From contig NC_089272.1 of NCBI RefSeq assembly GCF_963678975.1, positions 63,748,574-63,812,573 on the forward strand: a DNA stretch of 64,000 nt, read 5' to 3'. A model generated the notes under the pieces. The model was given only the letters and a program-made list of their open reading frames with translations. It did no database searches and was not told the origin of the DNA. Shown here one piece after another: positions 1,305 through 53,826 of this stretch; positions within the stretch are counted from its first letter, which is position 1; each line of letters begins with the position of its first letter. This DNA comes from Dysidea avara (Eukaryota; Porifera; Demospongiae; Dictyoceratida; Dysideidae). A program made the position numbers and the translations under genes.

Positions 1305-2880
1305 CGAATCTTCTTGGTCCAAAAGTGTCCACTAGAGAGAAAATAACTAAATTTTTTAGCAATAATTACAGCAAAGCTTATCTTTCTATGCTTGATTTAT
1401 AAAACAATTTCTTCAAATGGTTCAGTTGCTCCCATTGCTCTGTATAATTTGTATGCTCATTGCTACTTCATTGCATGCTTAACACTTTTATGTGTAATAT
1501 CATTAGTTGAAGAGGGAGCTTGTTGGTATTGTTATTCCTTATGCTAACAACTGATACACACACGTACCCATAGATGTACACACACTACAAACAAAGCCTT
1601 TGGCTGCTGTATTCATAGCTAATCATCCTGGGAACAAAACTAGTAACCTTCAGAAGGCCGTACAGGTGGACATCTGAAGTCCCACGTGAACCTGTTATGT
1701 GAGACATGCTTCTCCAGTTGACACCCAACCAACACATTTCCTTTTACAGCTGCGTAGCTGAGTAAAATTTCTTGTACCAACCCATACTACTCACCCATGT
1801 ACACACATCCAACTACACAGAAAGTCATTTAATATAGTGATTCTCAGTAGTCCCAGGTACTTTTCTGTTTGTGTCATTATTCCATTCTTTAGTCTATTAT
1901 CCTCTACCTCAAGTGTGCTTACGTGCCGTTGTTATGTCCATTGTATTTCCTTCTTGAAACATGTCTGTTGTCTGAAGTGGAAGAGCGACAGGAAGAAGTT
2001 TTATCTCCGACTCTAATGTACACCTACACTCCATTCACACTTACCGAACTTGAGTCAACCATTGTTCACACTATGGGGCTGGGGATTTTGTGCGCCAAAT
2101 AATGAGCCAGAACAATGTATAATATGAGCTTTAGGTGCTTAATACAACCACTGAAATTGTAGCAACGACACAAAGACGATGTTATAACCATTGTATTATA
2201 GCTAGTGGGTGCCTCTTTTGCCAATGTCAGTAAAACAAAATGGTTGGGAGTCTACAGTTCATGTTGTGGTATGTCCTTGGTGCACTGTAGTCTTGTAGAA
2301 TAGTTTTAGAGTCTAGAAAAATACTTGCTGTGTATCCAAGATTTGTTGTTTTTATTATAGCCATGTTTTTGGTCCTAAAGTGACGTTACCAGGTATAATG
2401 ACTTCTCTTTTAACTGTTGAAAGTGAAATTGAGATGGTCTTATTACTTAACGTGGTCCCTTCTTGTTTGTTATTGCTTGTTGTGTACTTATTGTAAGGAG
2501 CTGTAGAAAAGCTACTAAATTACAACAATTTCCCTGCTGTAGTGATGATGTGTTTACTGTCAACTGATCATTATTAGTATAATATAACATTGTGAGGTCA
2601 ATGAGTCATCTTGATATGTTCAGCATGTTTGTGGGATTAAGTCACGTTTGTGTAGCTAGGTAGGAAACTGTTTGTTATGTGTGTGCATCTGTGTGTGTAT
2701 GTTTATGTGTCTGTCTATGATTGTGTGTCTGTGTGTGTGTGTGCGGTCTACCCAGCTATAACATCAATGGGTACCTGGAGGAACAAATGCCCAACTGTTC
2801 ATGTCTCTTAGCAATGTAACTTATATTCAATTGTTTATTCAGTCCAAATCTTTAGATTGCCAATTAGCTGTACTTCCCAT

Positions 2881-3091
<211 letters not shown>

Positions 3092-3777
3092 ACAGAAGCT
3101 TCTTATCTGATCAACGTTTTATAGCATTCAGTACAAAGTCCATCACAGTAGCCATAGCAAAACCAACACAATCATAAGTTTTTTGTTAAGAAATGCGTTG
3201 ATGGCTAGTGGTACACAGATCAATAACTTAAGTAGTGTCTAACTGCAAATCCACCAACTGCAGTGCAAAGTAAACATTCCTTCTGAAGCTTGGAACTATA
3301 TCATTGTGTACACCCACAAGAATTCCTGTTTGTTGTAAAGGGTACAGAAAGAGGTGTGGTATAGAAGATGTTTGCGGCAATGGTATGCTTATTTCAGACT
3401 TGGTATATAAATTTATAGTGAAGCCATATGAAATGTAGCTGCTTATGGAATGAAATGTGCCACAATACTGAGTACTTGAGAGCTTCCCTGAATTTGAGTT
3501 GATCATCCTGGATGAGATGGTGACATGTGTAGGATAGTGTTACCATACTAGTGCAGCCTTGTATGGTAGCATGTCAGCTTTTTTTGTAAAGGCTTATGAG
3601 GATGGTTTAACTTTTAGCAACAGAAAATGGTGTTTGGCATACATAATGGAAGAATAAGAAAGTTCAGCAGGTTTTCCTCTTTCAGAGTTACATGTATACA
3701 GCCATTCTTGTTGGGACCAAAATCGTTTGTCCTTATTTCTGACAATGTTCGTGTTGTTGTGCATCACTAAATTTGGA

Positions 3778-3988
3778 TACCTATACATGCAAATTTTCGA
3801 GGGACGTAATTTTTGTAGTTGCTTAGCTATCAGCAAAATTTTCACCTCTAAAATTAACAATTAGTATGGTTAGCTCAATGCTTTCTAATAGGCAACCTCA
3901 GCTGAAAAAGCTAGTGATCCTCGAAAATAGAACTAAAATTTGTAATCCGCAAAAATTACGTACTTCAAAAATTTGTGCGTATACGGTA
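3778..3988. mobile_element. MITE, TACC(G)TATAC termini
   Basis: The ends are imperfect inverted repeats: the left end has CAAATTTTCGAGGGACGTAA and the right end the reverse complement of a close variant with AAGTACGTAATTTTTG. A diverged counterpart occupies 7817-8020 in copy B, so this insertion predates the tandem duplication. It has no coding capacity. Confidence 0.55.
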
Positions 3989-3989
3989 G

Positions 3990-4151
3990 CAAGAGTTTAT
4001 AATATTTGTATGGGGAGAGTGTCTAACTCTCAGTATGGCCTGTACAAACACCCTGCGTAAAGTTCACCTTTCATCAAATCAACACCTTTACTGGGGATAG
4101 AATGGATGCATTCTTAGACACTCTCCACCTTACAAATATTGTGAACTCTTG
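3990..4151. mobile_element. MITE of the CAAGAGT family, 7-bp target duplication
   Basis: 162 bp with ends CAAGAGTT...GAACTCTTG, flanked on both sides by ACGGTAG (3983-3989 and 4152-4158). Inside the ends, GGGGAGAGTGTCTAACT is mirrored by AGACACTCTCCACC. Copy B of the tandem duplication has the unoccupied site near 8013-8021, with a single TATGGTAG followed by the downstream sequence. Full-length relatives lie at 24572-24839 and 51718-51964, both with 7-bp duplications. Confidence 0.85.
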
Positions 4152-5117
4152 ACGGTAGCATAAATCACCAAATAAAAATATTTTATTTCTCCATCACATA
4201 AAGGATATGCAGGTGGAAAGAATCACTATAACTTATGGATGTCATGTCATAGAAGTGTGCCCACAACCTTTGTGCTTGACAGTCACCTCTCTAACTATCC
4301 TCATTGTAGTGACCATGTCAGGTGTACTCCATGATAATTAATAAGACCACCTTGAAAAGTACCTAGGTCTTAAACGTAGCTAAAATGTACCTCATGACTT
4401 CATTAATAAGGCCACCCAGTCATTGAGGCCATATTGGACTGTCATCTCAAAACTCTTACTAGGAAAATATCTTTGATCACTAATTATCACTCCCACCACT
4501 ACCATGGACAAGCAGTCCATAATAATTATTCCTTGTACGAGTAATTATGAGATGGAAGTCAGTAACTGACAGGATGATAACATTAGGCTGAGATGGTCTA
4601 CTGGACCAAGATGTTATACTAGAGTATGTTCACGTTGAGTTAATATCTCAAGCCATTAGCACAATGATTGGAAGTTTTGTATGCCACTATAACTATTGAA
4701 TTCCTTTGAAGAATGCTTACAAGTGTGATTTTTATAAATGCAAGTCTCAAATTGTCTTCCTAAGTTGGTATTGAAACCATACAAATCAAATATGCTCTTC
4801 ACACCTTTGCAGTCATCTTACAAGATGAAATATTTACAGAATTGTTCTTATCCTTTAAACTGTTTTCTGAAGTATCAACTCATTAATAGCTTAACTCAAG
4901 TTATTGTACATACCAGCTTATCTACTAATACCTACTTATCTACTAATACCTACTTTGGACGTAATATTACAATTATGTTGGGTTTTCACTCAGTGGGTAG
5001 ATGTAACTGCTTCCATCTCATGATATATTCGAAAGAAAGCCTTCTATTGAAAACAAAGATTTAGTCCCCTGGCTCCATACTCTAAGAAAGGACAACCTCT
5101 TCATTACAGCAAAAATA

Positions 5118-8100
5118 GGCCAAATATTCTTGGTCCGAAAGTGTCCACTAGAGAGAATATGAAATGACTAATTTTTTAGCAATAATTATAGTAAAGCTTC
5201 TCCTTATTTCTATGCTGATTTTAAAAAAACAATTTCTTCAGAATATTTGTTCCTGTATAATTTGGTATGCTCATTGCTACTTCATTGCACACTAGTATCA
5301 TTGGTGTATGCATTGAGCAATGAATGCTCCATAGGATTGAACATCATCTCTGTGTTACTAAATATCTGTAAACAGGAAAGGAGATTAAATAGAATGTTTT
5401 GACTTGTTAATTAATTGATATTTCCAGGAAGGATCTCAATATTATCATGTTGATTTAAAGTGATGGTTGTCTAACTGTGAAACTTGTTATGAGAGGGAGC
5501 TTGTTGGTATTGTTATTCCTTATGCTAACAACTGATACACACACATACCCACAGACGTACACACAATACAAAAAAAAGCCTTTGGCTGCTGTATTCATAG
5601 CTAATCATCCTGGGAACAAAACTAGTAACCTGCAGAAGGCTGTACAGGTGGACATCTGAAGTCTCACCTGAATCTTCATCTGTTATGTGAGACATGGGTT
5701 GGCTGTTTCTCCAGTTGACATCCGGTCAACACATCCCCTTTTACAGCTGGGTAGACTGGAGCAATGTGGGTAAAATTTCTTGTACCAACCCACACTACTC
5801 ACCCGTGCACACACATCCAACTATTATCTCAGACTGAAAATCATTTAATATAGTGATTCTCAGTAGTCCCAGGTACTTTTCTGTTTGTGTCATTATTCCA
5901 TTCTTTAGTCTATTATCTTCTTCCTCAAGTGTGTTTACATGCCATTGTTGTTTCACTTGATTATTCCAACCATTCTGTTTGCCTTCATGATGGAAAGGTT
6001 TATATGCTTTGAAAATTTGAAAGGGTGATGCCTAAGTCTCGTTTTTAACTATATTCCTGAATCTCTATGTTGTCAGAGTCAACTGTAAGTGTGTAGCTAC
6101 CACCACTTGGAGAACCATCTGAAGAACCTACAGTAGTGACAGATACTTGCATTTGGGGATGTTTAAAGATCCCTGCCAAGTCTTATTCCACTGCTTAAAA
6201 CAAACTAAATCATTTTGTGGCATTGTATGGTCAACATGACTTAAAATTGGTTAGTAAATTTTTGTATCATCAACAAAAGTCCACAAAGAACTTTGTTTCC
6301 ATTGTATTTCCTTCTTGAAACATGTCTGTTGTCTGAAGTGGAAGAGCGACAGGAAGAAGTTTCATCTCCGACTCTAATGTGAAACCTCACTTACACCCCA
6401 TTCACACTTATCGAACTCGATTCAACCATTGTTCACACTACCTGGTTGGAGATTTTGTGCACCTAATAATAGCCAAAACAAGGCACAGCATATAAGTTTA
6501 GGTGCTTAATAAAACCACTAAAATTGTAGTGACAACACAAAGACGATGTTATCACCATTGTATGTTAGCCAGTGGGTGCCTCTTTTGCCAATGTCAGTAG
6601 AACAAAATGGTTGGGAGACTACCGAAAGCATGGTGCATCTTGTGGTATGTCCTTGGTACATTGTAGCTTTATTGTAGAATAGTTTTTAGAGTCTAGAAAA
6701 TGTTTGCTCTGTGGCCAACCAAAGCTGTAAACCCGAATTGGCAGCCCGGAGATGTGTTAACATTGACACCAAATGTAGCCAAGATGTGTTATTCTTATTA
6801 TAGTAGGGAAGCAGCCCACCCAGCTGTAACATCAGTGGGTACCTAGCCAACTGTCCTTGTCTCGCATAGCAGGTGATTGTTCAGGTGGGACTTTGGGCAC
6901 CCATATCTTCACCTGTGAGACATGGTACAGCCTCCTGCGGGTTACTAGTCCTGCCCTAAGAGGATTTACCTGTACTGACTTGTAGTACCTGAGTAGTGCA
7001 GTGTCCCAGTGCTGGTTTACTGGGAGGCATGGCAGCAGCAGCAACTAAGGCTTTGCTTTTTTTTTCTGTGTGTGTGTGTGCAGTGTAATATGGTGTAGCT
7101 TATGTTCAATTGTTTATTTAATCCAATCTTTAGATCACTGATGTAATTAGTTACACTTCCCATCAGCTCCACACACTCACACACAACAGAAAGTTCCTAA
7201 CTGATCAACATTTTATAGTATTCAGTACTAAGTCCATTACAGTAGCCTTAGCAAGACCAATAGGTTGATTGCATTTCTGGCTAGCGGTGCCATCAAGCAA
7301 ACTGCAAAGCCAGACATTCCTTCTGAAGGTTAGCTACAGCTTGGGAACTATCACTGCGTACACCCACGAGAGCTCCTGTTTGTTGTAATGGGATGGTATA
7401 GTGTAGAAGATATTTGTGCATATTTCTGACCCAGTAAATTTATAGTGAAGCCATATGAAATGTAGCTGCTTATGGAATGAAATGTGCCACAATACTGAGT
7501 ACTTGTGAACTTCCCTGAATTTGTGTTTATCAGCCTGGACATGTGTAGGATAGTGTTACCATACTAGTGCAGCCTTATATGGTTGCATATCAGCTTTGTT
7601 TATAAAATTTTATGAGGATGGTTTAGCCTTTAGCAACAGAAAATAGTTTAGATTTGTTTGACATACACAATGGAACCTCCATTGAGAGGAATAAGAAAGT
7701 TTAACAGGTTTTCCTCTTTCAGAGTTATAATAAAATGTATACAGCCAGTCTTGTTGGGGTCAAAATCGTTTGTCCTTATTTCTCACAATGCTCGTGTTGT
7801 GCTTCAATAGATTTAGATACTGTATACGTGCAAATTTTCAAGGGGCGTCATTTTCGTGGTTGCTTAGCTGTCAGCAAAATTTTCATCCTCCAAAATTAAA
7901 TGATTAGCATTGTTAGCTAATAGGTAACCTCAGCTGAAAAACTAGTGATCCTCGAAATTAAAACCGACATTCGTAATTCCCAAAAATTACACGCTTAAAA
8001 AATTTGTACATATATGGTAGTATCACCAAACATAAATATTTTTATTTCTTCATCACACCATATGGTTTTTGAAGGCAAGTGGAAAGAATCACTACAACTT

Positions 8101-29031: not shown

Positions 29032-29407
29032 ATAATCCTGACCACATCACGATTGTGGCTACACATTAGTTGCGTTATTTGTACCTGCACCATTGACAGA
29101 TCTTACAAATAGTAACAGCACAGGGCAGCTATGAGCTTTCTCACCTGACTGCATCACTATCACTCAGTATCAGTCACAGTGGGTGAGACAACTATGTCAG
29201 TAATGCAGTACAGTGGCCATAGCAATCACATGAGGTTGGGCTTTGGTCTCTGCAAAATCTTACATACTTAGCATGTCCATAGATAATATATACCTTACCC
29301 GGGATTGGAAACGGAGGCAATCAACACCTATCAACAAGTTCACTCAGCGTTGTAGTATCGCGAGTTTAGTGTAACGTAATTCCGTAATTCAGTCCGTGTT
29401 TTATAAA

Positions 29408-30686
29408 ATGGCGAATGCTGGAACTCGTAAAAGAACTCGTGCTAGAAAGAAGAGCTCGAAGCGGAAGAGCGGAGAATCCGATGGAAATGACGATGCTGGT
29501 TCGTTGTCATTATAGCTAACAATAAACAACCAGCGCTGGTAGCAAAATTTGGGCATTTTTACAGCTTAAACATTCAATCACTGATGTGCCTGGCCTGGCC
29601 TTGTGTGCAAGTTATGTTGATGTAGCCATTCATTAGCTATACCCATAGATAATATATACCTTACTATGCTATACCATACCTGTCTTTTTCTTTCAATGCA
29701 GGTCCCAAAGCAAAAGATGCTTTTGTGGAAGCACTCAGAAGCGTATTGAATGATGATTCATTTAAAATAATGTCCTCAGAAGCAATTGAAGCAAGAAAAG
29801 CGGCACAGATTCTGTTGGACTGGTGTCTTGATGCTGCCAACAATAACTGTTTTACAACATTTGTTTTGAAATTGTCAGAAGACCTGAAACAGGCAATGAG
29901 CTCTTGTAAGAAGAAATCATGCAATCGTGAGAAACTTTGGAGAAACTTTTTTCTGTTGCGCTCTTCAGAGAAATTTCGAGAGGACTGGGTAAATTTTTTG
30001 GACTCCGCTAATGTGGCTGCTACACCTATCCTGTATCAGCATTTAACTGATATTTTGTTCAGGGGATACATTGGTGATCATGTGACAGGGTGTACAGCTG
30101 AAACCAAGGTTGATCCAGCACCAGCTGTAACAAAACGCGAAGGGAATGCTCTTCGTTATGCTGCTGGCTATGTTTGTAGACATTTACGTAAGAAAATCGA
30201 ACGCAGTAAACATGAGCTTAAGGAAGAGATGGTATTGTGCCTGATGGCTTTAACAAAGGACACACCCGAAGAACATAGTGAATGTGGCAGTTCTGAAGAA
30301 TGGACATTAGCACTAGATAGAGGTGGGCTATGGTATGTTAAAGAAACAACATTTATATTGTTTATTGCAATAGAAGAAGAAGTGAGAGAATGCCTAAAAA
30401 TGTTACTTGGTAGCAACCCAGCAGCTGGAAAAAAAAAGAGGAGATTGTTGAAAAAGTTATCTCCAGTGATGATGTTGAATTTTATTGGCTGATTTCCACT
30501 GCAGATTTCGAGATTGGTGAGAAGGAGGTACATAGTGCACTTCTTAAGGAAATAGTGCAGCTTTATGTGACTATCCGTGGATTTTCATATGCGAGCTTTT
30601 AGATGGAGAAATTTAAGCAGTCAGCAAAAAAGAGTACACAGCAGTCAAAAAGCTTACGTAGAGACTTGTATGATAGCAGCTTATAG
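29408..30686 (+). pseudogene. Accessory gene of the P-type transposon, unknown function
   Basis: Exon 1 (29408-29498) encodes a lysine/arginine-rich N-terminus (MANAGTRKRTRARKKSSKRK) that looks like a nuclear localisation signal. It splices at G/GTTCGT to an acceptor ending at 29701, keeping the frame. Exon 2 encodes a mostly helical protein with LLDWCLDAANNNCFTTFV, a conserved-looking NALRYAAGYVCRHLRKKIE segment and a basic C-terminus. A frameshift at the A run near 30430 and one TAG near 30599-30601 (before MEKFKQSAKKSTQQSKSLRR) break it. The frame on both sides of each break still looks coding, so decay is recent. No known domain recognised. Likely a partner of the transposase (inference). 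Confidence 0.65.
29644..29668. mobile_element. 25-bp micro-insertion with 7-bp target duplication
   Basis: Begins with the first 20 bp of the P-type element terminus (CATAGATAATATATACCTTA) and ends CTATG, the complement of its own first five bases. It is flanked by CTATACC on both sides (29637-29643 and 29669-29675). The same 25 bp in reverse orientation lies at 53529-53553 with a different 7-bp duplication. Confidence 0.75.
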
Positions 30687-30802
30687 TATATTATATTATT
30701 AACATTTGCAATGCTATGCATAACACAACTTTATTTTGTGATTACAACAACACAGTAAATGATACAAGCAAAATATTAATTAATTGATAATAAAAATGGA
30801 AT

Positions 30803-31358
30803 TTAAGGCAACAGCTTTTGCAGAAGTAATTCTAATACCATTTGTCGCCTAATGCTAGTCATATCACATTGACTAAAGTTGAAAGAAGTTTTGTTAGCCA
30901 GGCACTGAGCAATTCTGCATACAAACACACCACAGTCTGAATTATTTGTCTGTTGTGGAACACCTTGCGAAGTAGAACAATTCCATTCCGTGGTAGAGGC
31001 ACAGTTGGATGATTTCTCTAAAATATATGATTTTAATGCTTCCAAACATGCTGGATTTGGTTCATGCAACGAGTCATAATAAACAATCTGTAGGTCAGCT
31101 GTGCTTATGCTTGCTAAACACCAGTGTGCTCCAAGGTGCACTGGAACCAACAACAACCTCTTGCTAAATAAATCAGTTTCCTTTGTCCACCGGCACACTG
31201 CCTGGGAACCAAAACGTACAAGCTTTGGATAGAAAAATGTGCTGTATACGTAGACATCTGTGTTGGCCTCAGCTACTAATTTCATGTAGCAGTTTATCAC
31301 CTAGCAAAAGAAAATGGCAACACATAAAAAATAAGTACTACATCACGAATAGCCTTAC
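30803..31358 (-). pseudogene. Ulp1/SENP-type cysteine protease domain fused to the transposase
   Basis: The last exon (31300 to 30803) carries a C48-family core: LLLVPVHLGAHWCLASIS with the catalytic His, IVYYDSLHEP with the Asp, and PQQTNNSDCGVFVC with the oxyanion polar residue and catalytic Cys. A 58-bp intron (31301-31358) separates it from the preceding exon, which ends in LNDQ; the next codons are VINCYM, giving the family's usual LNDxVIN entry motif. The tryptophan expected before LND is a TAG stop. Such enzymes cleave SUMO or related ubiquitin-like proteins. All catalytic residues are intact although the gene is broken upstream. Confidence 0.85.
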
Positions 31359-34300
31359 TTGGTCATTTAACTATCCGGTATCTTTTAAAGTCCAGAAGTC
31401 ATGACGTGTTAAAGTAATGGTACAACACCTTGATAATTCTTCCTCCGCAGGTCCTGGTCCTAGTGCCTCACTAATCATATCATCATCAGTAGAATGGGCC
31501 TTCTGCTCAAATGATATGTCCATTTCTGTCACATCATTTCTATCGTGACTGCCAGCAAGTGTATCCTTTTCATCCATTTCAACAATGTCTACTTCTGCAG
31601 AAGTTTGCTGATGCTTATGACTTTTCACCTGATCATTCGAGCAAGATTCATGGGAGGCTTCTGTCACATCTGATGTTGCTTTTTCATTAAGTACTGGTGC
31701 TGGCACATCATTACTGTTAGGGTTATCGCTTGAACTGGCAGGCATATCAACAGTAACAACTTTCTGTACAGGAATATCCAAATATTTTGAAGCTGTAAAC
31801 AATACTTTTCTTGGAGCAAATGACTTTTTTTTAACCTTTTTGGCTGCCAGTAACTTCAATTTGCTTTTGAACACTCTTGGTGGCTTTATAAGCTTAGAAT
31901 AAGATTTGTCCCTACATTTAGCCTTGCACCGTTTCTTAAGTGGCCTGCTCTCCTACTCTATATCTATAGACTGCTTCTTGCCACGGCAATTTCCTTTTGA
32001 AATGCTTCCACAAACAGAATTGATTACTTTCAGTGCCTGACTATTCTTACAAAAATCATTGACATTTGGGTTTTCATGTCTCCCTCCACGTTGCCTTTGG
32101 CAGCCAAAGTAATTTTCAAGAGGATCTTGACAAAGCCTCTCACTCAAGAAGATTTTAACTCCTGGTATGGTGAATATGTATTTAACCAGTTCCACAAATG
32201 ATTTAACTAAAAAAGATTAATTGATAATTAAAATAATATATTATTACTGCATGCAAGACCTGTGACAGTGATGCCAAGACGAGTTTCCCTAGGCATTAAC
32301 ATCATTTCCTTTTGTTTTGGAGAAAATCCTTCCCTTTCATAGACACTTTTCTCCCAGTTCTCCAAGTAAGGCAAAAATTCTTCTTCAAGCCACTGCAGTG
32401 CATAAGCAAACAATAAAGTACAACATCTACTAAGTAGTTCTCTAAAATGGTCTACTGTCTACAAACAATGTCACACCCCAATGCATACATTATAATAATA
32501 CCAATAACATACTTGCAAACGAAAATCCTTTTTAGAAGTGTAGGGATCTTTGAATGATTCCCTGCTGTGGTATCCAGTAACAGCATTGGATACGTTGAAG
32601 CAATCAAAAAACTTATCAATCATTTTAACAAACTTGACTGTTTCCTGTACTTCTTCACCATAATTCTCTTCAAGCGACTTAGCCACTGTCTCACTAAGAG
32701 CCTACACATGTATAATGCATTATACAGCATGCTAATCACATTCTTGTGAACTTACTTGTGCAGCTAAATCCACTCTCATCTTCGAAAACGTCGTTAAATA
32801 AACATGCTCGTACCTCAGCTTTTTCACTTGTCTAATAACTCCTCCTTGTTGGGGTACTGCTTGTGGTCCTCCTGTATCATCAAGGTAAAGTTGTTCTAAG
32901 TGCCCCCATGATATTTCTTTACCATTGCACTAAATGTAAAAGGAAAAATAACGTACTCTCATTGTAGCTATAGCTATCAACTTACCCATAATTTTCGTTT
33001 GTTACTGTTCCAGCTATTTCTAATTGTTTTTAGCAAATGAGGAGGATCAGATATGAAATGCAAGTCACGTGGTCCCTCTCGTGCAAAAGGGTTGGGTACT
33101 TTGTAGACCATTTCATCTTTGGCATTGTGGAGTTTCCACAATCGACGATTTGGTGATGCACCATCACACGTAATTCCTAAAACACGGAAGCCCATTCTCT
33201 CAAGCCTTGATATTGCCTCCCACACAGGGTCAAACATCAACTCTCCACTGAGGTTGTTACAAGCAAACTGCGCATATGGGTAGTTCAACTTCTGAAAAAT
33301 GCCTCTCACCATTAGCACCAACATTGAACTTGCGAGTTGTTGTTCATGTTGTGTCTCACCTAAAGCATTCTCAAATTCAAGCAGTCTATTGTTAGTGTTG
33401 CCTAGATTGACAAAGCCGATTAAAGAACCCTGGTGTTTATCATATACAAGGTCAGTCTTGATATGAACTTCATCCATGACTAAGAAGACATATCTGTTAA
33501 GCTCGTTACTCAAAAAAGCAATGTCGTAAAGCTCTCAATCTGTTTCTGCAGAGAAGCCGATGGTAGTTGATGTATAGTGGGTGTAATCACGCAGTGTTCT
33601 TTGTGAAGGCAGTTTGATGCACCCTGTTTTCCGCAGTAGTTCATATGATTTTCCAGATAAATGTCTGAGATACAAGCTCCACTTAAAGACTAGTGGGTGC
33701 CACTTCATTGACCGAGAGTCCTTTATAGAGCATGCTGTTTGCTGTTGGTCCCAAAAAAGGCGTTGAAAAGATCCTTCTGGATACATAGAATGTACTTGCT
33801 TTGTGGTTGCATCCATCATAGCCTTCATATCATCATGCAGATCAACATTTAAGGTTACACCGTCTTGGGTAGCTGCAGTTGAAATCTTCTCTTGTAATCG
33901 ACAAACACGAAGCTTTGCTTTTTTGCTCTCCTGGTGTAGATTTCTCAAGCGCTCATCTTTTTCAGACGCACTCAAATTCGCATAAGTTGTATGACTGCTG
34001 GGATGAGTCTTCTGATCTTTTCGACGACGTGACAGCATAGCTGATAGTGTTTTCTTGTATTTCTTACAACATATGCACAGCCTGGACTCTTCTGTACTGT
34101 TCATCAATATATCACACTCAACATGATAGATGGATAAGCTACCAGTCCTTGCGGTGTCCAGTGCTGCCACAGTGCTGGTTCCTACAAAAGTTATTCACAT
34201 CAAAGTATCGTGAACACAACAAAGGTATGCACACATAAAACTTGTCATGCTCTATTGACTTTACATACAGTTAAATGTATGCAGAAAGGACAGCTTACTT

Positions 34301-35353
34301 GAATTATCTTTGAGTTCGCCATTCTGAATGTTTGGGAGCTTCAAGAATGCATCATCACAGTTGCCTTCGCAAACCTTGCTTGTACGTAGAATGTTGATAA
34401 AGTTTGATACATGTGAAACTACAGTAAACATAAAATTTCCATTGCATGTTTAATATCGTACAGCAATCCAACCAATACCTGAATTAAGAGATGTCGGAAT
34501 GTCTTTCAAAAGAGCAGATGAGGGCTTCAGAGTTTCTCTTTTATAATTCACAATCCATGAGAAGTCTTCCTTAATGGCTAACGATCTTAAAACCTCAGTG
34601 CCAGACTCAAAATAACCCAGTTGGAATATTCTCAATTCTGCATTTTGGATTGTATCAATCCACCCTGTAAAAGGAACGATTTAGCTAAGCATCTGCACAC
34701 ACTGTGTCACTATACCTGAAGGAATGCCATTACACTGTTTCAGTCTACTGTGCAAAATATCCAAAGACCTGACTGGTGCATCAACAAATGAGCACAAAGG
34801 CAGAGACACTTGAAATGACAGTGGCAGAGACACCTTCAGCACTGACATATCTCTCAAAGGAATTGAAACTGGTAGCCTCTTAGGTTTAGGCTGCCAGTGT
34901 TTGTTACTATGAAGTCTAAGCTTTCTGTGACCTCTCCTATCATTCATCTGTAAAAAAATCCAGTGCAAACTATAGCTATATGCATAATAATAAAGCAACA
35001 GTTCTGAAAAGGAAATACTTGCATTCACTTGAAGATTCAAGGATTTCGCCTACATCAGTACAAGTCAGCAGCCTTAAAACTATCCTATTTTGTTTGTATA
35101 CATATGAATTACAGGAAATACTTAAGAAAGAAAGTTAGTAGCCTTTAGAAAATGACCTGTAGGCCTCAAAACTTAATACCTCAAAATCGCTTGTTTCGCA
35201 GTTGCGCTGCAATTTGATGGCATAAACGGTAAAACTAAGGGTTTTAAGTTGCATGATTTTGTCCGCTAATGTCTCAGCTTTCAAACAGTGTAGTTTACAT
35301 CGAAATATATCGCTCCCACACTGCTCTACGAACCCCAAAAGTCGAGGGTACGA
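31359..35353 (-). pseudogene. P-element-type transposase, multi-exon, with nonsense mutations
   Basis: Exons that fit GT/AG borders: 35353-35180, 34947-34716, 34664-34479, 34418-34299, 34181-32986, 32929-32756, 32701-32513, 32458-32260 and 32206-31359. Motifs in order: a coiled region with basic residues, WHPLVFKWSLYLRH and LPSQRTLRDYTHY, then VMDEVHIKTDLVYDKHQG (first catalytic Asp), LGITCDGASPNRR (second Asp), FISDPPHLLKTIRN (nucleotide-binding insertion), and SERLCQDPLENYFGCQRQRG near the C-terminus (acidic residue). These match P-element/THAP9-type transposases; no N-terminal THAP zinc finger was recognised. In-frame stops are TGA at 33535-33537, TAG near 31940 and TAG near 31370. A polar linker (to 31359) leads to the protease exon. 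N-terminal exon order is tentative. Confidence 0.85.
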
Positions 35354-35693
35354 CTAAAAAGCCATTTTTTGCATAAACCGCGTCAAACGCTATTTGTTCA
35401 AAATTTTGACGATTGTATGCAAGTAATACAACAGTATTGTTCTTACCACCACGGTAAATCCTCTTCATGTTCACAACTAGTAGCTTATCTACCCGTTCTT
35501 TCCTTTCTTCCGTCGGCGAGGTGAACCTTACATATCAAAGCGAAAGTGTTAATTATTACAATGCTGACGGCTCGCGATTTTTGTATTGAAGTGTGTCCGG
35601 TTTCCAATCCCGGGTAAGGTATATGTTATCTATGGCATGTCCAACCATGTGCTCTAAAGACTCCTCTTCACCCACACTGATCATAAAGGCCTA

Positions 35694-38625: not shown

Positions 38626-40429
38626 GTCCAGATCGAGGGGTCCGACACTCTTGAAATCTCGTACGCTTCGTCATAAAATCACATTTGAAATCATGAAATC
38701 ACACACTCAAAAGAAATCAGAAATCACACTTTTTGAAAATGAAAATCGTAAAACTCCGTATATTTCCGTAAATTACGGACGCATTGAATTACGCGATATT
38801 ATTAATTGGAACATAACAGAAGTGATTTAAGGCCCGAATCACTTGATCTGGCACTGGTTCGGCTGCCAATCTTTAGAATTTTACAGCCCAAGCTGAGTCC
38901 ACTAATGGTCAAAAGCTTCCATCACTGGAGCCATAGATTTTAGAGGCGCAAAATCTATGCTGGAGCCACACGAGTGATCTGAGAATCCATCTCGGAATCT
39001 TATTCAGTTTTAACTAGCAATTTAGGCTCTACTCGCAGCCACAAGTGACGGTACATCATAGTGACTGCATGGGTTAATGATGAAACGGGTAAACCATTTA
39101 GAAGGGCTGCAAACTATAAGCACACTTTTGCAAAGAAAGTAGTTCCCAGCATTAGCTTCAGGACAAATAATTATGCAGCTTGTCTAGAAAATATGTATGT
39201 CAGTACTGGTTAGTAACTAGCTACTAGGTGTAACTTTTCAAAGATTAGCTCACATAATATGATTCTGCTTGTTCAGCTGACCCACTAAACATATTTACAT
39301 AACTCGCAAGCAAACATTTCATATAAAACAATCCTGGCATACACAATGAAGACCATGGATGTATCCAGATCAGTTGACTGTGTACTTAGGTGTTTCCTGC
39401 CACTGTGGTTGTTAGTCAATATGAAATGAGATCAGGGTTGTTATCAGAGAGCCATTCCAGTTTTCAATACCATTGTGAAGGAAGGGATGTGCACGTTACT
39501 GATGTTAGCAGAGATATTGTTTATGTCAACTTTCAGGTGTGATTTAATCTATTGTGTATTATAAAACTGGTATAGGTAATATATACAAGTAGCTATCTTT
39601 CTGCATATAGCTAAGTCAGCTTCATGCAGATTAAATACATCACATATTGATCAGATAAGGTTTATAAGTTCTGCTAAATTTTGCAGGTATGTTCATTGCT
39701 GGCAATGCATCATATTGGTTTGCATTATATTATTTGAAGAACTGATAATGCAGGATGCATTGGAGCTAACAGTGTATAGCACACAAATTTTACGGAGAAC
39801 AATTACCTAATCAGTGACTTTATGGAAATACAATGCCAAAATGGTCCTCAGACACTATGCTCTTTGCTCGGAGGACATTATAGATTTTGTTTAGGTTTTA
39901 TAATGTAGTTAAGTAGGTGTAGCTTGTAAGTAGTTTATTTTATTGTAATTAGTGTGGTAGTTTGTAATTTGCTAGTCTTTGTATTCTTTTGTGCTTAACT
40001 TTTCTGTGTACTTGTTTGTTATCTATTTTTGTAAATAATTTTACACCTTTTTCATTACCTAATCATTACTGATTGAGTCCAAGTCTATCTCCTACCAAAG
40101 ATACTGTTTTAAATTCATCATAACTCAGTGATAAAAGTGTAACTGAAATCATGTGGACCCACTGATGACACGCAACCATGTAATAGTAACCAATTCCAAT
40201 ATACTTAATTAATCACATGTATCACCATCAGCTACTTTTATTATTATTATTGCTGGGCATGCCGATGTGCCAAGGGGACGTGAGTAATGCTCCAAGGAAA
40301 AAATACACAAGATAACAACAGTACTGCTTTATTATATCTACCGGTAAAGACGATACTCGACAATGCCTAACATTGCCTATACCATTTTTACTTTACAGCA
40401 CAAGTATGTAGTAGCTTTTTGATAATGCA

Positions 40430-53210: not shown

Positions 53211-53528
53211 AGGCGGGCACCTGACACCTCGACGTCATGGCGGCAAGTTTGAATCTTCAAAGAGCACAAAAGCGATCTCATAAACTGACAAACAACTTTT
53301 AGCGAAATTAAATGTATAGATACATTGTGTAAAAAGCCCCTGATAGCCGCAGCCTTTTACAATACGACTTCATGGTTGAAAGAAAATCGCCCCAATGGGA
53401 TGCGATGACGAAGAAAATGATGCACTTTTGAATAAATAATTTCATTAATGCATTGTAAATGGGTGGGCGATGGAACAAACTACTCCAACAATTCGCCTGA
53501 CTTTTCGTGTGGTAGTTACTCATTATAC
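53211..53528. other. No gene recognised
   Basis: Short non-coding stretch between the candidate exon and the micro-insertion. The minus-strand open frame here shows no motif. Confidence 0.4.
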
Positions 53529-53553
53529 CATAGTAAGGTATATATTATCTATG
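53529..53553. mobile_element. 25-bp micro-insertion, second copy, 7-bp duplication ATTATAC
   Basis: Identical to 29644-29668 in reverse orientation, flanked by ATTATAC on both sides (53522-53528 and 53554-53560). Termini CATAG and CTATG match those of the 6.36-kb P-type element. Confidence 0.75.
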
Positions 53554-53826
53554 ATTATACAAAGGTTACATGCCCCTGGTTTTCGAGGTAGAATTTTTTG
53601 GTAAGGCTGAGATTTCGCCAGGCGGATTTTAAAAGATTGCATAATCGATCCCTCATGTAAATGACTCACAGTAGTGTCGCGTGTTTATTATTTTGTGGGC
53701 GCGCGCTTTGTGCTTCTTGGCCTCGCGACTCACTATCGCGGACTGCGTGACCGTTGTTACATGATTTTCTTACAGAGGCATTAGCAAATCAAATTCGCTC
53801 GTATCACGAGATCTAGCGCGGCAAAA

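What the first reader, a model, noticed from the sequence alone, without database searches (positions are those of the whole stretch)
29644..29668. 25-bp micro-elements with their own 7-bp target duplications
Two copies of the same 25 bp (here and 53529-53553) are each flanked by a different perfect 7-bp repeat (CTATACC, ATTATAC). They start with the outer 20 bp of the P-type element and end with CTATG, so they keep both tips and almost nothing else. This would be near the lower size limit for a transposable unit, or the scar of a special excision or abortive insertion.
Basis: seen in the sequence. Interest (0 to 1): 0.88.

Follow-up and report, generated by a model that had tools for sequence, protein, structure and literature searches.

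The report
Excision scars of P-type transposons
The two 25-letter sequences are most likely not tiny jumping genes but scars left where a larger P-type transposon was cut out and the broken DNA was joined again, two of many scars of varied length in this genome.

Summary
In detail: identical 25-mers at 29644-29668(+) and 53529-53553(-), each between a different perfect 7-bp repeat. The 551-Mb host genome holds 32 exact copies, but 26 are one event carried as a passenger inside a P-superfamily element. The 25-mer belongs to a spectrum of inserts of 20-59 bp built from the two tips of at least three related P-type termini. Of 73 independent sites examined, 47 have a perfect 7-8 bp target duplication and 11 one mismatch; cross-site control 2 of 5550. 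There are 58 different sequences, joints favour microhomology, and P1 tips of 28 nt or more beside the other tip were not found. Empty paralogous sites show the sequence is derived, including 196 empty copies of the repeat that holds the second window copy; none was found for the first. Drosophila P elements heal this way after excision (PMC2895639), but with 17-nt tails and 8-bp duplications; here tips of at least 21-23 nt are kept and duplications are 7 bp. The scar reading is strongly supported; a 25-bp mobile unit is not.

The parts
29637..29643 (+). left copy of the 7-bp target duplication CTATACC
29644..29668 (+). 25-bp excision scar 1: 21 nt of a P1 tip joined to CTATG of the other tip (one shared C); lies inside the P element
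29669..29675 (+). right copy of CTATACC
53522..53528 (+). left copy of the 7-bp target duplication ATTATAC
53529..53553 (-). 25-bp excision scar 2, in a dispersed repeat that has 196 empty copies genome-wide
53554..53560 (+). right copy of ATTATAC
29271..29277 (+). 7-bp duplication GCATGTC left of the P element
29278..35634 (.). P-superfamily element (called P1 here), 6357 bp, terminus CATAGATAAYATATACCTTACCCGGGATTGGAAA...
35635..35641 (+). 7-bp duplication GCATGTC right of the P element
31953..34194 (-). frames with P-type transposase domains: HTH PF12017 (E 0.0075, below cut-off), RNaseH_N PF21787 (4.5e-25), GTP-binding insertion PF21788 (0.003 and 6.5e-5, below cut-off), RNaseH_C PF21789 (7.1e-6)
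30803..31300 (-). Ulp1-like cysteine peptidase domain (PF02902, 5.6e-33) inside the P element
29653..30492 (+). open frame of a second, plus-strand gene of the element, no Pfam match; scar 1 lies just upstream of an acceptor-like site, so probably in an intron (inferred)
38932..38959 (.). 28-bp scar-like insert CATAGATTTTAGAGGCGCAAAATCTATG between perfect CTGGAGC repeats (another terminus of similar type)

Best explanation
The 25-mers are excision footprints of P1-type elements. Shown: both copies of the 7-bp target duplication stay, and between them lie only the outermost bases of the two element tips, with many different joints genome-wide. Inferred from the known P mechanism: transposase cuts one strand exactly at the element border and the other strand some 23-27 nt inside, so the donor gap keeps two 3' single-stranded tails of tip sequence. 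When the gap is not refilled from a sister copy, the tails are trimmed, paired at microhomologies, sometimes extended on templates, and joined. In P1 the first 23 nt of the tail hold one G, at position 5. A tail trimmed to end in C21 would pair there (or, if the tail is 26 nt long, with the GGG at 24-26), and pairing at position 5 gives 21+5-1 = 25 bp at unrelated sites (inferred). Copy 1 formed inside a P1 element, probably in an intron, and was then multiplied as a passenger when that lineage amplified.
For: (1) Spectrum: 15 nt of tip plus 0-28 nt plus CTATG gives 344 strand matches (palindromes counted twice), reversed control 1. The places listed there plus the exact 25-mers make 73 independent events with 58 different sequences of 20-47 bp; 47 of 73 have a perfect 7-bp (one 8-bp) duplication, 11 one mismatch, 15 worse. 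Cross-site control 2 of 5550 pairs, on the 75 sites before merging. (2) Length limit: 14 sites of 49-59 bp where 49-78 was allowed; 11 of 14 have a perfect duplication. P1 tips of 28 nt or more followed within 28 nt by CTATG: 0. (3) Microhomology: of 41 events without inserted bases, 33 share at least 1 nt at the joint against 38% in random joints; of 16 events whose right part is exactly CTATG, 15 share its C or more. (4) Extra bases as in end joining, e.g. L030 with TATG repeated before a perfect duplication. (5) Empty sites: 196 for the repeat around copy 2, four fetched and aligned; L037, L044, L047, L063 have empty paralogues in fetched sequence; L028 lies in a repeat whose 8 window copies are empty. 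(6) Target motif: in 46 scars T2 37, A6 28, C7 26, G1 25, palindromic GTTNAAC-like, like Galileo GTANTAC (PMC4168063 passages). (7) Precedent: Drosophila P repair joints keep 8-bp target copies and up to 17 nt per tip, one class being a long left tip plus 4 bp of the right tip (PMC2895639 passages).
Against: No excision was observed and no second individual was available. For scar 1 no empty site was found (0 with up to 2 mismatches). 15 of 73 events lack a good duplication, L006 and L028 among them. The shared C of the 25-mer is a one-base microhomology, weak on its own; the 26-bp joint with a 3-base match (L043, L097) was seen twice, the 25-bp joint 7 times. The P2 and P3 tips were read off the scars, not off intact elements, so their decomposition and the 26-nt figure are partly circular; in P1 the longest unambiguous tip is 23 nt (L112, L119), 26 only in the palindromic joint L071. 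Left flanks of intact P1 copies match the scar motif well at its right half (A6 13 of 19, C7 13 of 19) but weakly at its left (G1 6, T2 8 of 19). Where a site had several candidate ends the one with the best duplication was taken, a choice that the control does not repeat.
Confidence: 0.93

Rival explanations
1. The 25-mer is itself a mobile unit, the smallest transposon, moved by the P1 transposase.
For: Identical sequence at unrelated sites, three of them with perfect 7-bp repeats of their own; 7 independent events hold the exact string.
Against: It is one of a spectrum of 20-59 bp inserts with shared tips and different joints; a C variant of the 25-mer exists at L089, as separate excisions would give; 26 of 32 copies are passengers. 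Drosophila P needs at least 138 and 216 bp of its ends to move; the same passage notes that under 100 bp per end may do in Anopheles (PMC1562414), still far above 25. In sequence held no duplication-flanked insert lay between 53 and 351 bp; later searches added 53, 54 and 55 bp ones. Most of that sequence was chosen through scars of at most 48 bp, so the gap is only indicative.
Confidence: 0.02
2. Interrupted gap repair: after excision the gap was copied from a sister P element but copying stopped almost at once, leaving tips only.
For: This pathway is known for P elements, and internally deleted copies exist here (L104-L106, about 2.49 kb).
Against: It predicts a tail of longer tips; none with 28 or more P1 nt next to CTATG within 28 nt was found, and lengths stopped at 59 bp although 78 was allowed.
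Confidence: 0.03
3. Abortive or ends-only insertion: cleaved tip fragments were pasted into a new target.
For: Would give tips between target duplications.
Against: It needs two tips joined to each other before insertion, while sites such as L030 (extra TATG) and L028 (part of the duplication lost) look like repair at the target.
Confidence: 0.02

Closest known systems
Drosophila melanogaster P-element excision footprints (end joining of 17-nt 3' overhangs; passages of PMC2895639 and PMC7776569)
   Same: Target copies kept, outer tip bases kept, microhomology joints, templated insertions, a recurrent class with one long tip and a 4-5 bp tip
   Different: 7-bp instead of 8-bp duplication; 21-23 nt or more kept per tip instead of at most 17; here seen as a natural genomic record rather than in crosses
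Galileo transposon (P superfamily; passages of PMC4168063)
   Same: 7-bp duplications, occasionally 8; palindromic target motif GTANTAC, here GTTNAAC-like
   Different: Galileo has long foldback-like inverted repeats; the word footprint does not occur in that paper's main text
P-MITEs of Anopheles gambiae (passages of PMC1562414)
   Same: Non-autonomous DNA with P tips and target duplications (8 bp)
   Different: P-MITEs have up to 100 bp of P sequence per end and a body of their own; the scars have neither

Membership tests
P superfamily (source element 29278-35634) | P/THAP9-type catalytic domains (RNaseH_N, GTP-binding insertion, RNaseH_C) | tested here: met
   PF21787 and PF21789 above the curated cut-off; PF21788 below it in two frames; PDB 6p5a P transposase weak, E 0.042
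[quoted passage not shown]
   no THAP match among the stop-to-stop frames given to Pfam (10, 8, partly the same); introns were not removed
P superfamily (source element 29278-35634) | terminal inverted repeat starting CA and a 7-8 bp duplication | tested here: met
   window copy GCATGTC; L104, L105, L106 perfect 7 bp; L103 has an altered right tip and no match: 4 of the 5 copies read at both ends
P-type excision footprint | both target copies kept around tip-only sequence | tested here: met
   47 of 73 perfect, 11 one mismatch, 15 worse; control 2 of 5550
P-type excision footprint | variable joints with microhomology and occasional insertions | tested here: met
   58 sequences in 73 events; 33 of 41 insertion-free joints with microhomology
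P-type excision footprint | at most 17 nt kept per tip (Drosophila stagger) | tested here: not met
   the 25-mer keeps 21 nt of P1; up to 23 unambiguous in P1, 26 in P2
P-type excision footprint | staggered cleavage by the element's transposase | not testable with these tools
   needs biochemistry
MITE / mobile micro-element | one conserved body copied to many sites | tested here: not met
   spectrum of 20-59 bp with many joints
MITE / mobile micro-element | ends long enough for transposase binding | tested here: inconclusive
   25 bp against 138 and 216 bp needed in Drosophila (PMC1562414 passage); not measured for this family

The most novel reading that the evidence does not exclude
A P-superfamily transposase with a stagger of about 25 nt, longer than the 17 nt of Drosophila P, has left hundreds of scars that record both its cut geometry and the host's end-joining habits; one scar was then multiplied as a passenger by the same family that made it.
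Probability: 0.6. Interest if true: 0.65.

Novelty: new variant of a known kind. Interest (0 to 1): 0.5.

Why it matters
P-element footprints are known to me from crosses and plasmid assays (PMC2895639, PMC10983969, passages). Here one genome holds a natural series from which a transposase's stagger, its target motif and the host's end-joining habits can be read without an experiment. It also warns annotators: short repeats with both tips and perfect target duplications need not be mobile.

Tried and rejected
Rejected: a 25-bp mobile unit; interrupted gap repair; abortive insertion (see rivals). An early idea that the overhang is exactly 21 nt was dropped when longer tips appeared. Counting 32 copies as 32 events was rejected: 26 are one event. 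In one search the P2 tip was set to a longer string read off a palindromic scar; its 'left 32' values are an artefact and are not used.

Led nowhere: P1 copies without scar 1 (0). A count of all intact P1 ends did not complete, so the zero has no full denominator; 23 of the 26 scar-1 copies show an intact left end. The tool warns that counts are lower bounds and that no match does not prove rarity. L100 has near-empty paralogues (L043, L053) with a gap at the site itself and is not counted (whose output was cut). The species was not identified. Paper searches (the listings show 20 of 168, 6 of 6, 6 of 6, 15 of 46, 14 of 15, 15 of 79, 15 of 85) listed no survey of natural P-superfamily scars by title; other papers may hold one. 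Of the papers named I saw passages found by terms (PMC10983969, PMC7776569, PMC2895639, PMC1562414, PMC4168063), not whole texts.

Full report
What is there. The two 25-mers and their flanking 7-bp repeats are as described. The window also holds a 6357-bp P-superfamily element at 29278-35634 with a 7-bp duplication GCATGTC and terminal inverted repeats of about 35-38 bp. It carries frames with P-type transposase domains, an Ulp1-like peptidase and a second plus-strand gene. Copy 1 lies inside this element, 366 bp from its left end and probably in an intron; copy 2 lies outside.

Genome-wide copies. The window belongs to a 551-Mb assembly of 108 contigs. The exact 25-mer occurs 32 times, the reversed control 0 times. 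All 32 were read (30, two more). In 26 of 32 the surroundings are the same P1 sequence at different genomic places, so they are one event spread by the element. The six others are L002 (copy 2) and L010, perfect 7-bp repeats; L004, one mismatch; L030, perfect repeats after an added TATG; L028, only CTCT repeated; L006, none.

The spectrum. A search for 15 nt of the tip, 0-28 free bases and CTATG gave 344 strand matches against 1 for the control; only the first places, about a hundred rows on contigs 1 to 4, were listed. Flanks of the listed places were read. With the 25-mers they form 75 distinct sites, 73 after two more duplicates (L012, L065) are merged. They hold 58 different sequences of 20 to 47 bp; 47 of 73 have a perfect duplication (7 bp, in L054 8 bp), 11 one mismatch, 15 more than that. 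Pairing left and right flanks of different sites gives 2 of 5550. The search did not select for duplications, but where a site had several candidate ends the best one was taken. At least three related tips are involved: P1 (the window element), P2 (...CCTCCGGACAC) and P3 (...CTACGTACCC); P2 and P3 are known here only from scars. Five further short inserts with perfect 7-bp repeats turned up unselected: L104:6309 (38 bp), L027:926 (14), L038:1467 (15), L093:214 (17) and window 38932 (28).

The length limit. Allowing 49-78 bp, with at least 15 nt of both tips, found 14 sites, of 49-59 bp; 11 of 14 have perfect duplications. The longest joint without surplus bases is 52 bp, in P2. A search for P1 tips of 28 nt or more followed within 28 nt by CTATG found 0, although the P1 terminal repeat itself runs on beyond that. 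In P1 the longest unambiguous tip is 23 nt (L112, L119). A limit between 23 and 27 nt per side is what a staggered cut would leave.

The joints. Of 41 events without inserted bases, 33 share at least one base at the joint; random joints would give 38%. Palindromic centres recur (CCGG, CCCGGG, TACGTA). In P1 the first 23 nt contain one G, at position 5, so within that stretch a tail that ends in C can pair only there. This predicts P1 products of 20, 21, 25, 26 and 27 bp. Those of 20, 21, 25 and 26 bp were seen, though the 20-mer also fits P3 and the 21-mer a two-base CT match; the 27-mer from P1 was not seen. The 25-bp joint is the commonest, 7 of 73 with its C variant.

Derived state. The repeat around copy 2 has 196 matches of the empty site with a single target copy; four were fetched and align to the window flanks at 82-85%. 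Scars L037, L044, L047 and L063 have empty paralogues in fetched sequence, and L028 sits in a repeat that is empty in 8 of 8 window copies. For scar 1 no empty site was found, which fits one founder lineage but gives no direct proof.

Mechanism and comparison. Drosophila P transposase leaves 17-nt 3' tails, and their end joining keeps 8-bp target copies plus parts of both tips, with microhomology and templated bases (passages of PMC2895639, and PMC7776569). The joint listed there as CATGATGAAATAA(CAT)G is the close analogue of the 25-mer. The target motif of the scars (GTTNAAC-like, palindromic) and the 7-bp size resemble Galileo (passages of PMC4168063); in intact P1 copies only the right half of that motif is clear. 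What differs from Drosophila is the tip length kept. The stagger itself is inferred, not measured.

Verdict. A real feature, correctly seen. It is best read as an excision footprint, not a minimal transposon. The new part is the natural series and the long inferred stagger.

Noticed in passing
window 38932-38959: 28-bp insert CATAGATTTTAGAGGCGCAAAATCTATG with 10-bp tips between perfect CTGGAGC repeats: looks like a scar of another P-type terminus.
   Followed up: partly
L104-L106 against window 29278-35634: A 2.49-kb internally deleted P1 form (joined about 1468 to 5328) recurs at three places with its own perfect 7-bp duplications and still carries scar 1.
   Followed up: partly
window 30803-31300: The P element carries an Ulp1-like peptidase domain beside the transposase frames.
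   Followed up: no
L038:1467 and L093:214: Second scars lie within about 120 bp of another scar, which may reflect local re-insertion.
   Followed up: no
L019/L020:1904 and L023:66: Duplication-flanked inserts of 352-353 and 823 bp with CATAG...CTATG tips, candidates for short non-autonomous forms.
   Followed up: no
window 17594, 28006, 44794 and others: Dispersed repeat AAGATCGAGATACTCTAATAGAGCAGTC, 8 copies in the window at up to 4 mismatches.
   Followed up: no
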